A program made the position numbers and the translations under genes. Positions 31,501-54,952 of a DNA stretch of 64,000 bases are shown in pieces. The number at the start of each line of letters is the position of its first letter. Position 1 is the first letter of the stretch. This DNA is from Naumovozyma dairenensis CBS 421 (taxonomy: Eukaryota; Ascomycota; Saccharomycetes; Saccharomycetales; Saccharomycetaceae). The notes beneath the pieces are model-generated. The model searched no databases and was not told the DNA's origin. It saw nothing but the letters and a program-made list of their open reading frames with translations. The stretch spans positions 1,610,686 through 1,674,685 of the forward strand of contig NC_016479.1 in NCBI RefSeq assembly GCF_000227115.2. The letters are read 5' to 3'.

Positions 31501-31531
31501 ATTAATTTATTTATTTATTTATTTATTTACT
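31501..31531 (+). repeat. ATTT tetranucleotide array
   Basis: Tandem ATTT units lie between the convergent OLA1 and SCO genes, reaching the SCO stop codon. Confidence 0.8.
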
Positions 31532-32501
31532 TGAATAAAAAGGAATACCACTTATTATTTAACTTTTCACGTTCTTCCTTTGGAATATAAGCTTTAATAT
31601 GTTGTTCAATCTTATCAACACCAGATTTTTCATCATAAGTTCCACCCAATGCATCAATGAATTGGCCTTCAGGATCCATTAGATAAAAAAAGATCGAATG
31701 TTCCACAATGTAATCTTGATTCTTTGTCTCCCTTGGAGTTGCAAAGAAAGCCTTATATTTAGCACACATATCTTTAATTTCGTCATAAGTCCCCGTAACG
31801 CCAACAATATCAGGATGGAAATCCTTCAGATAAGCCTTTAATACCTCCGGAGTATCTCTATTTGGGTCACACGTAATGAAAATTGGTTGGATCTTTACAT
31901 GCTCACTACCACGACGTTTCTTTAGATCATCTAACCAAACGCCAAGCTTGTCTAATTCTTCAGGACAAATATCGGGACAATGAGAGAATCCAAAATAAAT
32001 TATTGTGAATTTCCCTAATAAATCTTGATCAGTGAATGGATTACCGTTAAAATCTGTTAATTTAAAGGGACCGCCAATAAAGGGGGTTCCATAACCTCTG
32101 TTAGCTTCTGCCTCTTTTTGAATTTCCAATAATCTTTTCTCTCTCCTCAGATATAGATATAAACTTGCTCCCACGGCTAAGAATATTACACTTGCTTTCC
32201 AAGTGGAGAATTTCAAGTTGAAGCCATTTGTTTTTGATATTGGTTCGACTTTTTGGTGTTGTTTAGTACTATCCTTATTGATTGTTATTCTCTCTAGTAC
32301 TTTTTTGTTATAGTTTCTTATACTACTGCTGAAAAGTTTCGAAGAAGTATATAAAACGGTGCTATTACGCATTAGTGATCGATTATTACATCGAACAATT
32401 ACATTAAGCAAAGGTGTCGTTTTGTCCTTAGTAAATGACGTTCTAAGTAGTCTTTGCATTTTTGGATGATATAATTTTTCTTTGACTCTACTAACGCTCA
32501 A
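31527..32501 (-). CDS. SCO2: Sco-family mitochondrial copper chaperone
   Basis: The protein is 324 residues from the ATG at 32501, with an alternative in-frame start at MQRLLRTSF. Sco proteins sit in the mitochondrial inner membrane and deliver copper to the CuA site of cytochrome oxidase subunit Cox2. A basic N-terminus precedes a single membrane helix (ASVIFLAVGASLYLYL). The thioredoxin-like domain holds the copper motif C175-PDI-C179 and the distal histidine in IVEHSIFFYLMDPEG. S. cerevisiae has SCO1 next to CHS2 and SCO2 between CHS3 and OLA1. This gene touches both OLA1 and CHS2, so it may equal either; SCO2 is a positional choice. Confidence 0.9.
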   Translation of the reverse strand: MSVSRVKEKLYHPKMQRLLRTSFTKDKTTPLLNVIVRCNNRSLMRNSTVLYTSSKLFSSSIRNYNKKVLERITINKDSTKQHQKVEPISKTNGFNLKFSTWKASVIFLAVGASLYLYLRREKRLLEIQKEAEANRGYGTPFIGGPFKLTDFNGNPFTDQDLLGKFTIIYFGFSHCPDICPEELDKLGVWLDDLKKRRGSEHVKIQPIFITCDPNRDTPEVLKAYLKDFHPDIVGVTGTYDEIKDMCAKYKAFFATPRETKNQDYIVEHSIFFYLMDPEGQFIDALGGTYDEKSGVDKIEQHIKAYIPKEEREKLNNKWYSFLFK

Positions 32502-41896: not shown

Positions 41897-43900
41897 CTAG
41901 AAAAATGTCTTTTCATGAGCATATTCCTGAATGCTGATTGTATCATCTGCGAGGTCATCCTTATTGAGAGACATTCTCCATTGATGATCAAAATCTTCTA
42001 CATTGGTCCAATGTTGGAACCATCCTTTGTCTGTCAAGAAGTTCTTAACGGGGACACCTGGGACAGGGAAGAAATAACATAACACCAGATATGAGAGGAA
42101 ACTTAATGCATAGCCAATCCAATAATTCAGATAATACAGTTTCATAGCACCGTCTGAAACGGTAATCTTTGGAGCACCCACTTCACCAATAAACCCTGGC
42201 AAATTTGGAGCGACACCACAAAGATACCCTACTAAAGCTCTCCAATTAATACCATATTTGTTACCATACATATAAAATGATCCTTTTTGATGAGAATAAA
42301 CGTGTGTTAATTTAATATAACCTCTTCTAACGACGAAATAATCAGCACAAACGACACCGGCAATACTTGATAAGAAGATAGCATATGCAGATAAAGCCAT
42401 AGTGAACTTACTTGAAGTTGCCATCAAATTCCATGGACAAATACATAATGCCATGAATGCACAAAACACAGAGCCACGTCTAATATTGATAAATTTAGGC
42501 AACAAGGCGGACATATCAGTACCACACGATAGGGAGTTTGCAGAAATGTTAGTACCTAATTGAGCTAAAGCAAAAACAAATGAAATTAAAAAGACACCTG
42601 CTCTGGTTCCCTTAGTGTATGATCTAACAAGAAATTGTTCTAAAACATCTAATGGTGACCAATAATTAACACCGTATAATTCATAACCTGCCGCGGTGAC
42701 AAGAATACCGACTAAACAAGTTATTGAGAAAAGGAATGGGATACAAAATAATTGAGACCATAATGCTGAGTGTTTCGTCTTAGCGAACCTGGAAAAATCC
42801 GGTGCATTGATGACCATTGTGGAGAAATTTGCCATACAACCCATGATTGATCTTAGCATTGCCCAAGAAAATTCTGAACCTTTTGGCTGTTCTGAATTTA
42901 AAGCACCTAAAGCAATGGTACCGCCAGCCTTCCTAACAGACCAAATTAAGAACCCAAAAGACGCAAAGGGAACTAAGGCAGCTTTAACTGTAAACAAATG
43001 TCTTACCTTATGAGGTTCAATCAATAAGAACGGGAATTCCACTACCCAAAAGATGAAAAAACACATGAATTCAAAAGTAGTTGAATTAGGAGATCCGAAA
43101 TGGTTGGGTATTCTGTCAGGTAAATTTTTGCCAAAGATTGATCTTAACATTAAAGCTACAGGAGCAACTGCAATCCATGATTGAACGGAGTACCAAACAA
43201 TAGCCATGACCACACGATTGATAATAGGCCATAAAGAAAAGAAAACACCGAAAGATGCTCTTGAGGAGATTGGGAAGGAAAGGTGATATGCAGACCCTAT
43301 TCTTGATGCCAAAACAACAAAAACACCAACAAACCCATAGCCGATCCAAATGGTAATCCAACACTGCCACCAATTTAAACCCAGCTGTAGCCCGGTAGCG
43401 GCAATTTGCCAAGTATTAATGTTGAAACATTCCGCTAACCAAAAATAACAAAAATTATACCAAGACCATACTCTTCTTTTCTTTTCGACAGGTTTCAAAT
43501 CATTATTAAACATGAAGGAATCTAATAATGAAACACCAGCAGTAGATTTATCGACAATCAAGTATTCATTATAGATTTTTTCCCATTTGGTTTTATATTC
43601 AGTTGGCTGACGAGCAGGCGGAAGCTCAATACCTATATCCTTTTCTTCTATTGAAGATTGTTCGTAATATCTTGTCGTTACCTTGTTCCCAGTAAATTCC
43701 TCCTCTTTATCCTTCTCGTCATTTGCATCTCCCGTACGCGGTCTTCTATACCCATTTGAGGATTGATGTACGTTATCTATTGATTCGAAACTACCTTGTC
43801 CTTGTAAGGGTTCATATTCTTCATTTTCGTATGTGTGACCACCTCTTGTTGTTGTACTGAAAATGATCGCCAGATCATCACCAGGCATTTTGTTTGACAT
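41897..43900 (-). CDS. FUR4: Uracil permease Fur4
   Basis: The protein has 667 residues (S. cerevisiae 633); a second ATG lies at codon 5. Fur4 is the plasma-membrane H+/uracil symporter of the NCS1 family, with 12 helices. The N-tail is rich in Glu, Ser and Thr (PEST-like, as in the ubiquitin-controlled S. cerevisiae N-tail). Core signatures are RRVWSWYNFCYFWLAECFN in parts, NTWQIAATGLQLGLNWWQ, SRASFGVFFSLWPIINR and APDFSRFAK. The C-terminus SIQEYAHEKTFF matches. FUI1 and DAL4 are paralogues, but the POA1-FUR4-GAL1 order fixes the identity. Confidence 0.97.
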   Translation of the reverse strand: MSNKMPGDDLAIIFSTTTRGGHTYENEEYEPLQGQGSFESIDNVHQSSNGYRRPRTGDANDEKDKEEEFTGNKVTTRYYEQSSIEEKDIGIELPPARQPTEYKTKWEKIYNEYLIVDKSTAGVSLLDSFMFNNDLKPVEKKRRVWSWYNFCYFWLAECFNINTWQIAATGLQLGLNWWQCWITIWIGYGFVGVFVVLASRIGSAYHLSFPISSRASFGVFFSLWPIINRVVMAIVWYSVQSWIAVAPVALMLRSIFGKNLPDRIPNHFGSPNSTTFEFMCFFIFWVVEFPFLLIEPHKVRHLFTVKAALVPFASFGFLIWSVRKAGGTIALGALNSEQPKGSEFSWAMLRSIMGCMANFSTMVINAPDFSRFAKTKHSALWSQLFCIPFLFSITCLVGILVTAAGYELYGVNYWSPLDVLEQFLVRSYTKGTRAGVFLISFVFALAQLGTNISANSLSCGTDMSALLPKFINIRRGSVFCAFMALCICPWNLMATSSKFTMALSAYAIFLSSIAGVVCADYFVVRRGYIKLTHVYSHQKGSFYMYGNKYGINWRALVGYLCGVAPNLPGFIGEVGAPKITVSDGAMKLYYLNYWIGYALSFLSYLVLCYFFPVPGVPVKNFLTDKGWFQHWTNVEDFDHQWRMSLNKDDLADDTISIQEYAHEKTFF

Positions 43901-44324: not shown

Positions 44325-44338
44325 CCCCCCCCCCCCCC
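44325..44338 (+). repeat. Poly-C tract (14 C)
   Basis: An uninterrupted C run in the spacer upstream of FUR4. Confidence 0.9.
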
Positions 44339-44837: not shown

Positions 44838-46392
44838 TTATAATTCATACAAACAACTACCTAGAGCTGGTTTGGAAACAATGATAGCTTCTTCCAATTC
44901 TTGGTCGGTAATTTGTGGGAATTTAACCTTGTAGTATTGATCAATCAAGGCCTTCTTGACCTTTTCAACACTACCATCTGGACCACCATAGGACCAAATA
45001 GGACAGTACAACACCCCAACCAGCACCAGTCAAACGAGAACCATAAGAACCATTAGCCAAAGCAATAGAACAAATCTTATCAGTTTCTGGACAAGAGCAT
45101 TCGTATAATTTATCACAAGAATGTTGAGATTGGTTCATTAAAGCACCAAATTGCTTGAAGAAATCTTCATCAGAGGCAAAAGTAGCCTTGGTCATTAATT
45201 GTAAAGCTTCCAAACTCTCAAAGATTCAGAGTAAACATGCTTAGCTCTTTGGTATAGCTTCAAGACTTGGAATCTAACTGGGAAAGTAGTCAAATAATCC
45301 TTGGTGAATTCTTCACGAGAACAGTTCAAAGCGGCAGCAGCTTCATCAACAGAATAACCATCCTTCTTTGGTAGCGAAAGTTTCTTCAACTAATTCTAAC
45401 ATCTTGTTCAAACGTTCGACACCAGTGGCAACTTCACCATCCCAAGCTTCAGCATTGTGATATCTAGCGTAGTAAGCATTCATGAGATCTCTCAAGTTAC
45501 CCTTGTTCAAACTAGATGGACCATCATGTTTTAAAACAACACCATATTTCTTAGCTAAGACATTAGCAGCGGCAGTAACTTCGACAACTCTCAAGTTATA
45601 GTTAGTTGGACCAGTTTCAACTTTGTTAGAAACGACCAAAGTATTAGCAATGACAAATTGAACATCACCTTTCTTCAATTGTGGGAACTTGAATGGAGTA
45701 GCTTTCAATTCAGGTTTGAATTCGACGTAAAGAGCGTGATCTTCTTCACCACAAACAGAAGCAGCTTGATCCATACCACCATTGTTGACACCGACATAAT
45801 GTTCAGCGACAACAGTGATCTTAGTCAAATCATGCTTGGATAATTTGTATTCTTCTCCCATGTTAGCTCTAATGATGGCTAAAGCGGTAGCACAAATGAA
45901 AGCAGCAGAGGAGGATAACCCACTACCAGTTGGGACGTTACCTTGACAGAAGATTTGTAACCCAGTTAATGGAGCGTTTTCGTATTTTGGAGCAATTTTC
46001 TTTAAGAATTCTTGAGCGACGTGTAGACCACATTTGAAATAGTTAGACCAGTCAGAGATGGATGGGTCAATGGAGACGTATGAACCATCTAATGGTAAAT
46101 CGAATTTCTTTGTAGCGAATCTAGCATCAGAGTTGGTTAAAGTGATTGATGGGTTTTTGTCGTTTAGGATTTTGACTGCAAGCAACATATCAACGTCAAT
46201 GGCTAATGGTAAGACAGAGAAATCAGCATAATCGATATGTTCACCAATTAAGTTGACTCTACCTGGAGATCTGGCGATGAAATCTGGTTTAGAACCGTAA
46301 GCTTTGACGAATTCTTCAGTGATAACCGGACATTTAGTAGCCAATGGCTTTGGCAAATCTTTAGTAGCAGAAGAGTAGATTGGAATAGACAT
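44838..46392 (-). pseudogene. GAL1: Galactokinase GAL1, broken by several frameshifts
   Basis: GAL1 phosphorylates galactose at C1, the first Leloir step. From the ATG at 46392 the frame is clean for about 341 residues: the galactokinase signature [12 protein letters not shown] and the GHMP ATP motif [15 protein letters not shown] are intact. That second motif keeps the Ser-Ala that Gal3 lacks, so this was a kinase. Then an extra A at about 45367-45369 leads to a stop soon after. The old protein continues in other frames: a T is missing at 45212-45214, a G is missing near 45011, and Ts are added near 45000 and 44992. The last segment, ending [12 protein letters not shown], still matches the family. 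As read, it encodes only the first 348 residues of about 520. Few other changes are seen, so the damage is recent or partly a sequencing artefact. Confidence 0.85.
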
Positions 46393-46813
46393 TTTTGGTT
46401 GTAAGTGTTTGTAGTTTATGGAGTTGTTTGTTGTTCTTTTTCTACTTTACTATTAGAAGTGTACAAGAAAAGGAAGAGTGGAAAAAAAAACCCTTCTGAT
46501 AGAAATAATGGCTTGTTTATATATGATATAATTCAAGTTCAAATTCAAGTTCTCCAGGAACTTCCCAAATCCATTATGCAACTTATTATTCTCCTCCGCA
46601 TTTCCAAAAAAAGAGGAAGGGAGAAGGAGTTACTTATTGATACGTGTATTTGCAGTTGTTTCTCTAGTCTTGGACAGTGTTTCCTACGTAGGAAAAAGAA
46701 TTGTTGTGGGGGTGCTATGAATATCATTATGGTATGCATGTATGGTATGTTACTGGAAAAAAGAGAACCGAGAAGGTAAAGAAAGGTTTCCCAAATTTTT
46801 CAACTGTCATGTT

Positions 46814-46830
46814 CGGGACATAGCCGTCCG
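46814..46830. promoter_or_regulatory. Gal4 site 1 (CGG-N11-CCG)
   Basis: CGGGACATAGCCGTCCG: both half-sites are exact with the 11-base spacer. Confidence 0.75.
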
Positions 46831-46959
46831 AATCCCGGCCACCACCAAAAACAGCAAGACAACCGAGAGAGAATGAAATGGAAGAGACCAAACCGTTTTG
46901 TTGCCAGCCTTGGTACCCGAGTGTCTCAAAATGATGAGAAATTCGTCGGAGCAACCTTC

Positions 46960-46986
46960 TTGTTGTTGTTGTTGTTGTTGTTGTTG
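46960..46986 (+). repeat. TTG trinucleotide array followed by C tract
   Basis: About nine TTG units run into GCGG and eight Cs (46990-46997) inside the GAL promoter. Confidence 0.85.
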
Positions 46987-47043
46987 CGGCCCCCCCCAAC
47001 CCCTCTCTCCTTCCCTCGCCGAGGCTTCACAAGCACACACACA

Positions 47044-47060
47044 CGGACCACTCCTTGCCG
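47044..47060. promoter_or_regulatory. Gal4 site 2 (CGG-N11-CCG)
   Basis: CGGACCACTCCTTGCCG: exact half-sites and spacing. It is two bases from site 3. Confidence 0.8.
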
Positions 47061-47062
47061 CC

Positions 47063-47079
47063 CGGCCAGTGGAGCACCG
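47063..47079. promoter_or_regulatory. Gal4 site 3 (CGG-N11-CCG)
   Basis: CGGCCAGTGGAGCACCG: exact half-sites and spacing, in tandem with site 2, as in cooperative UAS-GAL clusters. Confidence 0.8.
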
Positions 47080-47383
47080 AGGCCCGATTCTGGACACCAA
47101 CTAATTGAAAAAGCAATCCGAGATTTTCAAAAGGGAAAACCCCACTAAAAGAAACAAGCGAGGTAACGTTACTTCTTTTGTCATTATGGTAATTACGTAC
47201 AATAGTAGCCTGGGCCCTAATTGGCAACCTCGAGGAGTATACGTAAGAGCACATGTACGTACTTATGTGGAAAAAAAGCACCAAAGATATATAAGGAGGA
47301 TGTATCTACATTTATCATCGATTGTCTGACTTTTACCTTATTTCAATATTATGCTTTCCACTTTATGTTTTGCTTTTTCCTAA

Positions 47384-49561
<2,178 letters not shown>

Positions 49562-50186: not shown

Positions 50187-50199
50187 CCCCCCCCCCCCC
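50187..50199 (+). repeat. Poly-C tract (13 C) followed by AACCCC
   Basis: The same CCC...AACCCC arrangement occurs in the GAL1-GAL10 promoter at 46990-47003. Confidence 0.9.
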
Positions 50200-50264: not shown

Positions 50265-50281
50265 CGGTTCGCTATACTCCG
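50265..50281. promoter_or_regulatory. Gal4 site before the GAL7 relic
   Basis: CGGTTCGCTATACTCCG: exact half-sites and 11-base spacer, about 225 bp before the old GAL7 start, the expected distance. Confidence 0.75.
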
Positions 50282-50503: not shown

Positions 50504-51529
50504 ATGACTACTCAAGAAGTCGATTCCAATAAACTATTCACATAGACGTTATAATTCGGTAACCTATTCTTAAATTTTTGTCTCACCACACATAGCCAAG
50601 ACACTATAGGTATGTGAACAAGAAACTCAAGCCAAACCAAAAGTTTCGCTATAAGGATGAAAAGTATTTGGTAATTCAAGAACTACAGAGGGAATCCAAT
50701 CCAAATTATAAACAGAGATATGTTTTCCTAAATGATGATGATGATGATGATGATTTGAGTTAAATCAGTTATCACTACCAACTGATTATAACGGTAACCA
50801 TGAACTAAAGAGTAGAATATCATGAGGTAGACCCCGTCAAGTAGGAGGAATTGTTACTTCATTTGCTTCAATCCAGAACATTGACGTTAGTATCCCACAA
50901 TTGTAAATGATAAGTTCGTTAATGTTATTGGTGTTTAGGCCAAAGAACTATATGATTATTTGTTTGAGGATCCCTAAGAAAAAGGTAAGCCCTTTGAATA
51001 CGTTCAAATATTTGGAAATAAAGGGACCGTTATGGGTTGTTCTAACTTGTAGCCCCATGGTCAAGCTTGGTGTTATTCTATCACGCCAAGTGAAGTTTCT
51101 CTAGAATTGGAATTGTTTAAAAGATATAAGTCAGAGAACCATATTGTACTGGGTGGTTTGGTCATTTGAAACTATGATTTCTTTTAAGGCAAAGACGCAT
51201 GCTTCCATTAAAGCTCAAAAGAGTGATATGGTTTCGCTTTTTAAGAACTTGACAATTAGATATGATAATACGTTTAAATATAGGTTTCCCTTACTTCAAT
51301 GGGTCTGCAAGAAACCCTATTAAATGCTACTGAGGGAAAATAGATGGTTTCATATGCATTTCTGCCCACTATTAGTAAATCCGCTACAATTAGAAAATTC
51401 TTGCTATTGCAAAGAGATTTAACACCTGGAGAATCAGCTTCTATTAGGTTAAGAGAGTTAGAAGGTAAAACCATTTGTTTGAAGAAGCAATTCTCTAATC
51501 TCTTAACCTTTTTTTATTATTTGAATTAA
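50504..51529 (+). pseudogene. GAL7: Decayed galactose-1-phosphate uridylyltransferase GAL7
   Basis: GAL7 homology survives in pieces scattered over all three frames. The old ATG is at 50504. An HRRYN-like piece is at 50541-50555 followed by a stop in place of the family Trp, and VSPH is near 50580. NCYFICF (family NCFVICF) is at 50849. KPFEYVQIF then MGCSNL lies from 50987. The active-site HPHGQ is readable but its first His codon is TAG (51050-51052), followed by PHGQAW. TIRYDN lies near 51256, and SATIRKFL is at 51380-51403. Stops, indels and substitutions are many, so no uridylyltransferase can be made. Position after GAL10 matches YBR018C. Erosion is greater than in GAL1. Confidence 0.93.
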
Positions 51530-52165: not shown

Positions 52166-53481
52166 ATGGGTCAAGGAGTATCACAAGGACAGGGCGAGAA
52201 ACAAATAAAAAGGGTGGTAATCAAAAACCTAAATATGAACCACCTGTACAATCTAAATTTGGTCGTAAGAAAAGAAGAGGTGGTCCCGCTACAGCAGAAA
52301 AATTACCAAATGTATCACCAAGCACACGTTGTAAATTGAAATTATTAAGAATGGAACGTATTAAGGATCATCTCTTATTGGAAGAAGAATTCGTTACTAA
52401 TTCTGAGATTTTGAAACCATTTGAGAAAAAGCAAGAGGAGGAGAAGAAGCAATTACAAGAAATTAGAGGTAATCCACTAAGTATTGGTACATTGGAGGAA
52501 ATTATTGATGATGACCATGCTATTGTGACCAGTCCAACCATGCCTGATTTCTACGTTTCCATTTTGTCCTTTGTGGATAAGGAATTATTAGGACCTGGTT
52601 GTGCTGTTTCTTTACATCATAAGACTATGTCTATTGTTGGTGTCTTACAAGATGATGTAGATCCAATGGTTTCTGTTATGAAAATTGATAAATCTCCAAC
52701 GGAAAGTTACGGTGATATTGGTGGGTTAGAAGCTCAAATTCAAGAAATTAAAGAAGCTGTGGAATTACCATTGACTCATCCCGAATTATATGAAGAAATG
52801 GGGATTAAACCTCCAAAGGGTGTTATTCTTTATGGTGCTCCGGGGACAGGTAAAACTTTATTAGCTAAAGCTGTTGCTAATCAAACATCCGCTACATTTT
52901 TAAGAATTGTAGGGTCTGAATTGATTCAAAAATATCTCGGTGATGGACCAAGATTGGTGAGACAAATCTTTAAAGTAGCAAGTGAAAATTCTCCAAGTAT
53001 TATATTTATTGATGAAATCGATGCTATTGGTACTAAAAGATATGATTCTAATAGTGGTGGTGAAAGAGAAATTCAAAGAACTATGTTAGAATTATTAAAT
53101 CAATTAGATGGATTTGATGATACCAGTGAAGTGAAAGTGATTATGGCTACGAATAAGATTGAAACATTAGATCCTGCATTAATTAGACCAGGTAGAATTG
53201 ATCGTAAAATCTTATTTGAAAATCCAGATTTATCAACAAAGAGGAAAATTTTGGGAATTCACACATCGAAGATGAATTTAAGTTCAGATGTTGATTTTGA
53301 AACATTAGTGACGACGAAGGATGATTTATCAGGTGCAGATATTCAAGCTATGTGTACAGAAGCTGGGTTATTGGCATTAAGAGAAAGAAGAATGCAAGTG
53401 ACAGCGGAAGATTTCAAACAAGCTAAAGAACGTGTAATGAAGAATAAAGTGGAGGAAAACTTGGAAGGGCTGTATTTGTGA
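52166..53481 (+). CDS. RPT2: 26S proteasome ATPase Rpt2, with a frameshift near the N-terminus
   Basis: Rpt2 is one of six AAA ATPases of the 19S base and gates the 20S pore. The family start MGQGVSQGQ is present at 52166, with Gly2 for N-myristoylation. The rest ([19 protein letters not shown]... onward) is in another frame: one base is missing between about 52190 and 52210. The ATG frame ends at about residue 50. The main frame has no ATG before 52336, so a product started there would lack about 56 residues. Downstream all is intact: Walker A GAPGTGKT (52834-52857), Walker [12 protein letters not shown] and the C-terminal HbYX-type LYL. As RPT2 is essential in S. cerevisiae, either another copy exists or the indel is an error. 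Next gene PTC1 matches YDL007W-YDL006W. Confidence 0.9.
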
Positions 53482-54004: not shown

Positions 54005-54952
54005 ATGAACACACAGCCACAAGAGGAAACACCAGAATCATATGAATTAAGTTATAAGATTGGAGTAGCTGAGAATAAAATTCCAAATTTCGTAAGACGA
54101 TGGAAGATGTTCATACATATGTTCAAAACTTTTGCATCAAGGTTAGATTGGGGATATTTTGCCATATTTGATGGACATGCTGGCTTCCAGGCGTCTAAAT
54201 GGTGTGGGTCTAATTTACATTCTATTATTGAAGAGAAGCTTTTGAATAATGATAATGAAGATGGTAGTGCCAATGTTGATGTTAGAGATATCTTGAATGA
54301 ATCATTTTTGATTGTTGATAAACAAATCAATACTCAATTGGAAGGTAATAGTGGGTGTACTGCGGCAGTTTGTGTATTACGTTGGGAATTGCCTGATGAT
54401 AATGATAATGCTAATGATAATGATAATGGTAAAAGCACTGGTAATGCTGATGAGATACAGACAAATACTAATAGTAATAATAGTAAAGATTTGAGACAAC
54501 ACAAGAGGAAATTATATACGGCAAATGTTGGAGATTCTCGAATAGTATTGTTTCGAAATGGACATAGTATAAGGTTAACTTATGACCATAAGGCATCTGA
54601 TTTATTAGAGATGAAACGAGTGGAGGAAGCAGGTGGACTTATAATGAAAAGTCGAGTAAATGGAATGTTAGCTGTGACTAGATCTTTAGGTGACAAATTT
54701 TTTGATAGTTTAGTTATTAGTAACCCATTTACTACGAGTGTTGAATTAATCGATTCAGATGAATTTTTAATAATAGCGTGTGATGGATTATGGGATGTTA
54801 TTGATGATCAAGATGCATGTGAATTAATACAAGACATAAAAGATCCGAAAGAAGCTGCAAAGAAACTTGTTAAATATGCCTTAGAAAATGGTACAACAGA
54901 TAATGTTACTGTCAATGGTTGTAACGTTGTAAATATATATGTGTGTACGTAA
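54005..54952 (+). CDS. PTC1: Type 2C phosphatase Ptc1, with three one-base indels
   Basis: Ptc1 is a PP2C phosphatase that dampens the Hog1 and other MAPK pathways. As read it is 315 residues. IGVAENK is followed by an unrelated stretch (IPNFVRRWKMFIHMFKT) and then ASRLDWGYFAIFDGHAG in register. The other frame over this stretch reads NSKFRKTMEDVHTYVQNF, the proper family sequence. So an A is missing at about 54077-54082 and a T is added at about 54127-54132, restoring frame. The lost MED motif holds a metal-ligand acid of PP2C enzymes. LAVTRSLGD, ACDGLWDVIDD and GTTDNVTV are intact. A further A at about 54916 changes the family end (VMVV...) to NGCNVVNIYVCT. A Gly/Asn/Asp-rich insertion lies near 132-160. 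Confidence 0.88.
   Translation: MNTQPQEETPESYELSYKIGVAENKIPNFVRRWKMFIHMFKTFASRLDWGYFAIFDGHAGFQASKWCGSNLHSIIEEKLLNNDNEDGSANVDVRDILNESFLIVDKQINTQLEGNSGCTAAVCVLRWELPDDNDNANDNDNGKSTGNADEIQTNTNSNNSKDLRQHKRKLYTANVGDSRIVLFRNGHSIRLTYDHKASDLLEMKRVEEAGGLIMKSRVNGMLAVTRSLGDKFFDSLVISNPFTTSVELIDSDEFLIIACDGLWDVIDDQDACELIQDIKDPKEAAKKLVKYALENGTTDNVTVNGCNVVNIYVCT

What the first reader, a model, noticed from the sequence alone, without database searches (positions are those of the whole stretch)
50504..51529. GAL7 is a decayed relic at its ancestral site, with a stop in the active-site motif
Uridylyltransferase homology is split over three frames. The first His codon of HPHGQ is TAG while PHGQAW remains, so loss is certain. 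Relics of GAL genes in place are rarely seen outside Saccharomyces kudriavzevii, so this catches Leloir pathway loss in progress in another lineage.
Basis: partly seen in the sequence, partly recalled or inferred. Interest (0 to 1): 0.85.

Follow-up and report, generated by a model that had tools for sequence, protein, structure and literature searches.

The report
Dead duplicate GAL7 in dairy yeast
A broken copy of the galactose gene GAL7 sits beside GAL10 in the yeast Naumovozyma dairenensis, but an intact copy remains on another chromosome, so this looks like the leftover of a duplicated gene cluster that was split between two chromosomes and not like a yeast losing the ability to use galactose.

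Summary
Window 50504-51487 is a real GAL7 pseudogene: a frameshift-aware alignment scores 652 (8 shuffles: 31-41), with 15 frame changes, 4 in-frame stops and a 28-codon gap. TAG at 51050-51052 replaces the first His of HPHGQ. But the Leloir pathway is not being lost: the genome has an intact 368-aa GAL7 on contig C7, NDAI_0G01870 of Naumovozyma dairenensis, beside an intact galactokinase gene, while the window keeps GAL10. SCO, GAL1 and GAL7 share order and orientation on C1 and C7. The relic is best read as the lost part of a duplicated GAL cluster, probably from the whole-genome duplication (WGD): C1 kept GAL1-GAL10, C7 kept galactokinase-GAL7. Locus tags suggest the same split in 3 of 5 tagged relatives. 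The relic groups with N. dairenensis Gal7, not with Saccharomyces Gal7 (p-AU 0.029), which suggests gene conversion before loss, or a later duplication. C1 GAL1 also has broken frames but no missense decay; assembly error is likely, since RPT2 and PTC1 nearby show similar breaks.

The parts
50504..51487 (+). GAL7 pseudogene (relic), from ATG to near the original end; 15 frame changes, 4 in-frame stops, a 28-codon gap
51050..51052 (+). TAG in place of the first His codon of the HPHGQ motif; PHGQAW follows
50265..50281 (+). Perfect CGG-N11-CCG (Gal4-type) site 220-240 bp upstream of the relic's ATG; possible leftover promoter (local chance 0.058, so weak)
47480..49561 (+). GAL10, intact 693 aa, the only match in the genome search with this protein
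46393..47479 (.). Divergent GAL1-GAL10 intergenic region with three perfect CGG-N11-CCG sites (46814, 47044, 47063)
44841..46392 (-). GAL1: open for 348 codons (45346-46392), then at least three and probably four frame changes between about 45365 and 44987; residues stay conserved to the C-terminal GSCLYEL
41897..43900 (-). FUR4-like permease (Pfam Transp_cyt_pur), flank on the GAL1 side; the S. cerevisiae gene order is recalled
31527..32459 (-). SCO1/SCO2 homologue; paralogue at C7:402860-403804, a shared marker of the duplicated block
52167..53481 (+). RPT2 (proteasome subunit), flank on the relic side; its N-terminal part is in another frame (possible assembly error)

Best explanation
The relic is the inactivated C1 copy of GAL7 from a GAL cluster that was duplicated, most likely in the whole-genome duplication. 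Shown: this copy is dead; an intact GAL7, beside an intact galactokinase gene and with two Gal4-type sites upstream, exists on C7; the only GAL10 match is on C1; the two loci share SCO, GAL1 and GAL7 in the same order and orientation. Inferred: after duplication the two clusters were thinned reciprocally. C1 kept GAL1-GAL10 and lost GAL7; C7 kept a galactokinase and GAL7 and lost GAL10 without detectable trace. The pathway stays complete, in trans, presumably under one Gal4/Gal80 system. The relic itself probably does nothing. It was probably kept similar to the C7 copy by gene conversion until it lost constraint, roughly 0.15-0.22 substitutions per site ago.
For: Intact C7 GAL7: PF01087 226 bits, no stops; 368 aa, identical to NDAI_0G01870. 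Adjacent 522-aa galactokinase, NDAI_0G01860, without the two-residue gap that S. cerevisiae Gal3 shows in the GSGLSSS..AF motif. Only GAL10 match on C1. Of the window's ORFs of at least 100 aa (32), 6 match C7:310001-530000 at E <= 1e-8, in 7 rows. Of these, SCO (58% over 264 aa) and GAL1 (68% over 351 aa) lie in the block; the other 4 ORFs give distant matches (24-33%) at scattered places. With GAL7 three genes share order and orientation. The two N. dairenensis galactokinases fall in different groups, each with Kazachstania-type kinases: C7 copy with K. africana 0C (92/64) and an unnamed contig (95/91), C1 copy with H. naganishii (93/89) and K. africana 0F (93/85). Perfect CGG-N11-CCG sites: two upstream of C7 GAL7 (local P 0.0006, stretch chosen after seeing them), three in the C1 GAL1-GAL10 region (0 of 5000 shuffles). 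Two Gal80-type loci (248 and 247 bits) and two partial Gal4-dimer matches (33 and 28 bits, cut-off 22). The relic keeps 98 of 147 family-invariant residues, which neutral decay reproduces.
Against: The relic does not branch with Saccharomyces-type GAL7, as an unconverted orthologue at the GAL10-linked place should (p-AU 0.029), so gene conversion must be added. No GAL10 trace was found between the C7 genes (best E 1.7), so the full second cluster is inferred. FUR4, POA1 and CHS3 homologues have no ordered partners beside the C7 locus; three shared genes make a small block. The kinase tree has an open backbone and does not join the C1 copy to Saccharomyces GAL1 or the C7 copy to GAL3; H. naganishii's kinase, next to GAL7 by its tag, groups with the GAL10-linked C1 copy. 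Perfect Gal4-type sites also lie in unrelated places (window 42694, C7:426143). No growth or expression data were available.
Confidence: 0.83

Rival explanations
1. The Leloir pathway is being lost in this lineage and the relic is the first casualty.
For: GAL7 at this place is dead, and C1 GAL1 has several frame changes.
Against: An intact GAL7, an intact galactokinase gene, an intact GAL10, Gal80-type and Gal4-type loci are present. LaBella et al. 2021 list N. dairenensis among four species isolated only from dairy niches and give mean GAL1, GAL10 and GAL7 codon optimisation for them (PMC8084343, passage).
Confidence: 0.03
2. The relic is not a WGD copy: GAL7 was duplicated later, within the Naumovozyma lineage, and one copy died.
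For: The relic groups with N. dairenensis C7 Gal7 and its nearest unnamed relative P0002 (97/97; 99/96 and 97/95); the AU test rejects grouping with Saccharomyces-type Gal7 (p 0.029). Alignment scores are 652 and 618 for these two against 495-554 for the 7 others tried.
Against: The relic sits next to GAL10 in the orientation usual for the GAL cluster (recalled). The galactokinase-GAL7 pair of C7 is mirrored by neighbouring locus tags in K. africana, T. phaffii, V. polyspora and H. naganishii, so both places look ancestral. No more than 13-14 bp of similarity in either flank. At fourfold sites 48% of 58 match, against 38% of 90 for the GAL1 pair: not clearly younger.
Confidence: 0.13
3. The whole C1 cluster is decaying: GAL1 there is also a pseudogene and only GAL10 will remain.
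For: GAL1 opens for 348 codons only, with at least three frame changes in its last third; C7 carries a complete galactokinase gene that could replace it.
Against: 165 of 168 residues invariant in 15 kinases are kept in C1 GAL1 (114 of 117 head, 51 of 51 tail), so there is no missense decay. Two neighbours, RPT2 and a PTC1-like gene, show similar frame breaks in stretches that I recall as conserved, which points to assembly errors. This rival is compatible with the main reading.
Confidence: 0.25
4. The relic is an artefact: an intact GAL7 with sequencing errors.
For: The assembly seems to hold one-base errors (RPT2, PTC1-like gene, GAL1).
Against: Four in-frame stops, a 28-codon gap, loss of 49 of 147 invariant residues and near-equal synonymous and non-synonymous single-difference codons (69 against 67, where the GAL1 pair has 102 against 26) cannot come from one-base read errors.
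Confidence: 0.01

Closest known systems
GAL pseudogenes of Saccharomyces kudriavzevii (Asian populations)
   Same: Relic of a GAL gene still in place, recognisable by sequence.
   Different: Those strains contain only GAL pseudogenes (PMC10850751, passages); here one of two GAL7 copies is dead and each enzyme of the pathway has an intact gene.
GAL1/GAL3 ohnologue pair of Saccharomyces
   Same: Two galactokinase paralogues in one genome; GAL1/GAL3 are known ohnologues (PMC8084343 and PMC5089864, passages), and the N. dairenensis pair is also old.
   Different: In S. cerevisiae GAL3 has no GAL7 beside it (recalled). In N. dairenensis the second kinase stands next to the only intact GAL7 and lacks Gal3's two-residue gap. 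That the pair stems from the same duplication is inferred; the tree backbone is open.
Relics left by reciprocal loss of duplicated genes after the yeast WGD (recalled)
   Same: One copy lost at each of two sister places, with a degenerate remnant in one.
   Different: Here a three-gene pathway cluster is split, so that linked enzymes became unlinked while the pathway stayed whole.

Membership tests
Working Gal7 / GalT (galactose-1-phosphate uridylyltransferase) | One open frame over the GalT domains | tested here: not met
   Relic: 15 frame changes and 4 stops. C7 copy: met, 368 aa.
Working Gal7 / GalT (galactose-1-phosphate uridylyltransferase) | HPHGQ active-site motif | tested here: not met
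   Relic has stop-PHGQ; C7 copy has HPHGQ.
Pseudogene of GAL7 | Significant homology over the gene's length, with disabling changes and loss of constraint | tested here: met
   Score 652 against 31-41 in 8 shuffles; 98 of 147 invariant residues kept.
WGD ohnologue relic | Sister block with paralogues in the same order and orientation | tested here: met
   SCO, GAL1, GAL7 shared by C1 and C7; only three genes, so modest.
WGD ohnologue relic | Gene tree places the copy apart from its sister copy, at the depth of the WGD | tested here: not met
   Relic groups with N. dairenensis C7 Gal7 and P0002; grouping with Saccharomyces-type Gal7 rejected at p-AU 0.029, on a long branch. The GAL1 pair is split deeply, with an open backbone. 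Filed by position only; conversion is needed.
Lineage losing the Leloir pathway (S. kudriavzevii type) | No intact copy of a pathway gene in the genome | tested here: not met
   Intact GAL7, galactokinase gene and GAL10.
Lineage losing the Leloir pathway (S. kudriavzevii type) | Gal-minus phenotype | not testable with these tools
   No growth data seen; I recall only that the species ferments galactose.

The most novel reading that the evidence does not exclude
The duplicated GAL cluster was split into a GAL1-GAL10 half and a galactokinase-GAL7 half in parallel in several post-WGD genera. The N. dairenensis relic is the fossil of one late, independent case, in which gene conversion had kept the two GAL7 copies alike until the GAL10-linked one died. 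If so, two halves, each with its own kinase and a shared divergent promoter, would be a favoured alternative to the classic three-gene cluster.
Probability: 0.35. Interest if true: 0.6.

Novelty: new member of a known kind. Interest (0 to 1): 0.38.

Why it matters
Why pathway genes stay clustered is debated. Lang and Botstein (PMC3178652, abstract) found that disrupting the S. [quoted passage not shown] N. dairenensis, and by their locus tags K. africana, T. phaffii and V. polyspora, look like natural cases in which GAL7 became unlinked from GAL10 while all enzyme genes were kept. The relic shows which gene was lost from which place and allows a rough relative date. For annotation it is a warning: one dead GAL gene in a yeast with a duplicated genome says nothing about pathway loss until the sister place has been read.

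Tried and rejected
Pathway loss: rejected after the whole-genome search. Sequencing artefact of an intact gene: rejected. A GAL10 trace between the C7 galactokinase and GAL7: none (tblastn, best E 1.7). Similarity of relic flanks to C7 flanks, to see how far a conversion tract reaches: best matches 14 bp upstream (opposite orientation) and 13 bp downstream. Residues private to N. dairenensis C7 Gal7, to date the conversion: too few (1 shared, 3 like others, 2 neither). Dating from fourfold sites: near saturation, so only the invariant-residue simulation is used; it assumes neutral decay from a C7-like start, and of the ten values tried 0.15-0.22 fit within the 5-95% range. The Gal4-type site at 50265 as a proven fossil promoter: only weak (local P 0.058). 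My note that C1 GAL1 has no public name was misleading: the tool prints '-' for whatever the window itself encodes, so the public annotation of C1 GAL1 and GAL10 was not tested. My note gave 0.13-0.22 for the age; one search bears out 0.15-0.22. Literature: ten searches (one search found no paper). No title or abstract start in the listings, and no passage that I read in seven papers, describes this relic or the split; I read no paper whole. That is not proof of absence from print: Slot and Rokas 2010 and Hittinger et al. 2004 are not held, and most subscription papers are missing.

Full report
WHAT IS THERE. The window is C1:1610686-1674685 of a 13.53-Mb genome in 11 contigs. The intact Gal7 of its contig C7 is identical to NDAI_0G01870 and the galactokinase beside it to NDAI_0G01860, both of Naumovozyma dairenensis, on a contig of the same length, 1565278. 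The window therefore comes from that yeast.

The sequence downstream of GAL10 is a GAL7 pseudogene. Pfam PF01087 finds it with 7 stops inside. C7 Gal7 aligns by tblastn significantly in two frames (E 1.3e-32, 4.4e-26) and weakly in the third (E 0.13), and by blastn over 1121 columns, 700 identical and 164 gaps. My frameshift-aware alignment covers 50504-51487, protein 1-365 of 368: 316 codons, 179 identical, 15 frame changes, 4 in-frame stops (50571, 50607, 50975, 51050), 44 residues missing, 28 in one gap; score 652 against 31-41 in 8 shuffles. Eight other Gal7 proteins give scores 495-618, with 11-15 frame changes and 3-4 stops.

THE REST OF THE PATHWAY. A search of the whole genome gives two GalT places: this relic and an intact gene at C7:419698-420804, 226 bits, no stops. 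GAL10 is intact in the window, and a search with it finds no second place. There are two galactokinase genes: C1 (window 46392 to about 44841) and C7:416459-418027, 522 aa, 69% identical over the C1 open frame. The C7 kinase matches S. cerevisiae Gal1 (831 bits) and Gal3 (813 bits) about equally, and it does not have the two-residue gap that Gal3 shows in the GSGLSSS..AF motif. There are two Gal80-type loci and two partial Gal4-dimer matches; other factors of the Gal4 kind could also carry the latter. Perfect CGG-N11-CCG sites: three in the C1 GAL1-GAL10 region (0 of 5000 shuffles as many), two upstream of C7 GAL7 (P 0.0006, stretch chosen after seeing them), one upstream of the relic (P 0.058); also one inside the FUR4-like gene (42694) and one at C7:426143, with no link to GAL genes. 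The enzyme genes are complete, in trans.

ORIGIN. On C1 the order is SCO(-)..., FUR4-like(-), GAL1(-), GAL10(+), gal7 relic(+). On C7 it is SCO(-), two large ABC transporters(-), galactokinase(-), GAL7(+). A tblastn of the window's ORFs of at least 100 aa (32) against C7:310001-530000 at E <= 1e-8 gave 7 rows for 6 ORFs; SCO and GAL1 are block paralogues, and the other 4 ORFs give distant matches (24-33% identity) at scattered places. GAL7 adds the third. That the transporters are of the SNQ2 kind (by eye) and that S. cerevisiae GAL3 lies beside SNQ2 and GAL1 beside FUR4 is recalled, not tested. In the galactokinase tree (23 rows) the C7 copy groups with K. africana 0C (92/64 for the pair, 95/91 with an unnamed contig) and the C1 copy with H. 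naganishii (93/89) and K. africana 0F (93/85), so the pair seems to predate the split of these genera. Against a neat picture: the backbone is open, neither copy is joined to Saccharomyces GAL1 or GAL3, and the H. naganishii kinase stands next to GAL7 by its tag but groups with the GAL10-linked C1 copy.

The GAL7 tree fits a plain WGD pair less well. The relic falls with C7 Gal7 and P0002, an unnamed close relative (97/97), and holding it with S. arboricola Gal7 and two unnamed proteins of its clade is rejected (p-AU 0.029). Placement is the same with either guide protein in a larger set (99/96 and 97/95); pairing with C7 Gal7 alone is weak (89/57, 86/60). The relic is a very long branch (3.2), so this is moderate evidence. 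Either gene conversion kept the two GAL7 copies alike until one died (my preference, because both places look ancestral) or GAL7 was duplicated late.

SAME SPLIT ELSEWHERE. In the top-120 lists of three protein searches, five species appear with a name and a locus tag that I recall as post-WGD, besides Saccharomyces and N. dairenensis. In 3 of 5 GAL7 has the tag next to one GAL1 homologue and GAL10 the tag next to another: K. africana (0C00800/0C00810; 0F02430/0F02420), T. phaffii (0A04240/0A04230; 0M00660/0M00650), V. polyspora (1037p45/p46; 1036p26/p27). In H. naganishii GAL7 is next to GAL1 (0K01540/0K01550) and GAL10 is 0K01390, on the same chromosome but apart. For H. blattae only two GAL1 homologues were listed. 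Against a universal pattern: Saccharomyces keeps GAL7-10-1 together (PMC10850751, passages), and two unnamed contigs (lengths 11292 and 21483), whose kinases fall among the post-WGD ones, seem to carry all three genes, judged by equal contig lengths in the three lists. Tags give neighbourhood, not DNA; only in N. dairenensis did I see the DNA.

AGE. The relic keeps 98 of 147 residues that are invariant in 17 Gal7s, and 65 of 96 away from gaps and frame changes; of the ten decay levels simulated, 0.15-0.22 substitutions per site fit this within the 5-95% range. Single-difference codons are 69 synonymous, 67 non-synonymous and 1 stop, against 102 and 26 for the first 335 codons of the GAL1 pair. 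So constraint was lost long ago, though long after the WGD if conversion is right.

THE C1 GAL1. Its frame breaks after 348 codons and changes at least three, probably four, times down to 44987. Yet 165 of 168 residues invariant in 15 other kinases are kept, 98%; leaving out each of those kinases in turn gives 88-100%. In the same stretch of the assembly the N-terminal part of RPT2 and the TMEDVHTYV stretch of the PTC1-like phosphatase, both conserved by recall, lie out of frame. Assembly errors are the simplest reading; a very recent loss of GAL1 cannot be excluded. These errors do not touch the GAL7 verdict.

LITERATURE. Passages read: GAL1/GAL3 and GAL80 pairs from the WGD (PMC5089864; PMC8084343), two GAL4 and two GAL80 copies kept in S. 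castellii, by recall now Naumovozyma castellii (PMC3048525), GAL cluster retention in Candida (PMC5067116), S. kudriavzevii GAL pseudogenes (PMC10850751), GAL losses in Candida glabrata (PMC2675101). Abstract and outline read: PMC3178652. None of these passages mentions this relic.

VERDICT. Observation confirmed; interpretation of pathway loss not supported. It is an ordinary kind of object, a relic of a duplicated gene, in an interesting setting: a metabolic cluster split between two sister chromosome regions.

Noticed in passing
window 44841-46392 (-): GAL1 on C1 changes frame at least three times in its last third while its residues stay conserved (165 of 168 invariant positions kept).
   Followed up: partly
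window 52167-52350 (+): The N-terminal part of RPT2, from the ATG that reads MGQGVS, is in a different frame from the rest of this proteasome gene; likely a one-base assembly error.
   Followed up: partly
window about 54080-54140 (+): PTC1-like phosphatase: the TMEDVHTYV stretch (conserved by recall) lies in another frame than the protein on both sides; two compensating one-base errors are likely.
   Followed up: partly
G000:C7:404289-413918 (L003, L004): Two adjacent large ABC transporters of the PDR/SNQ2 kind by eye (1502 and 1500 aa) in tandem, two genes away from GAL7 on C7.
   Followed up: no
G000:C4:328996-329451 and C2:262007-262462; C9:163053-163166 and C6:297971-298150: Two Gal80-type loci and two partial Gal4-dimer matches: the regulators may be kept in duplicate too.
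   Followed up: no
window 44325-44338, 46990-46997 and 50187-50199: Runs of C between the FUR4-like gene and GAL1, in the GAL1-GAL10 intergenic region and upstream of the GAL7 relic.
   Followed up: no
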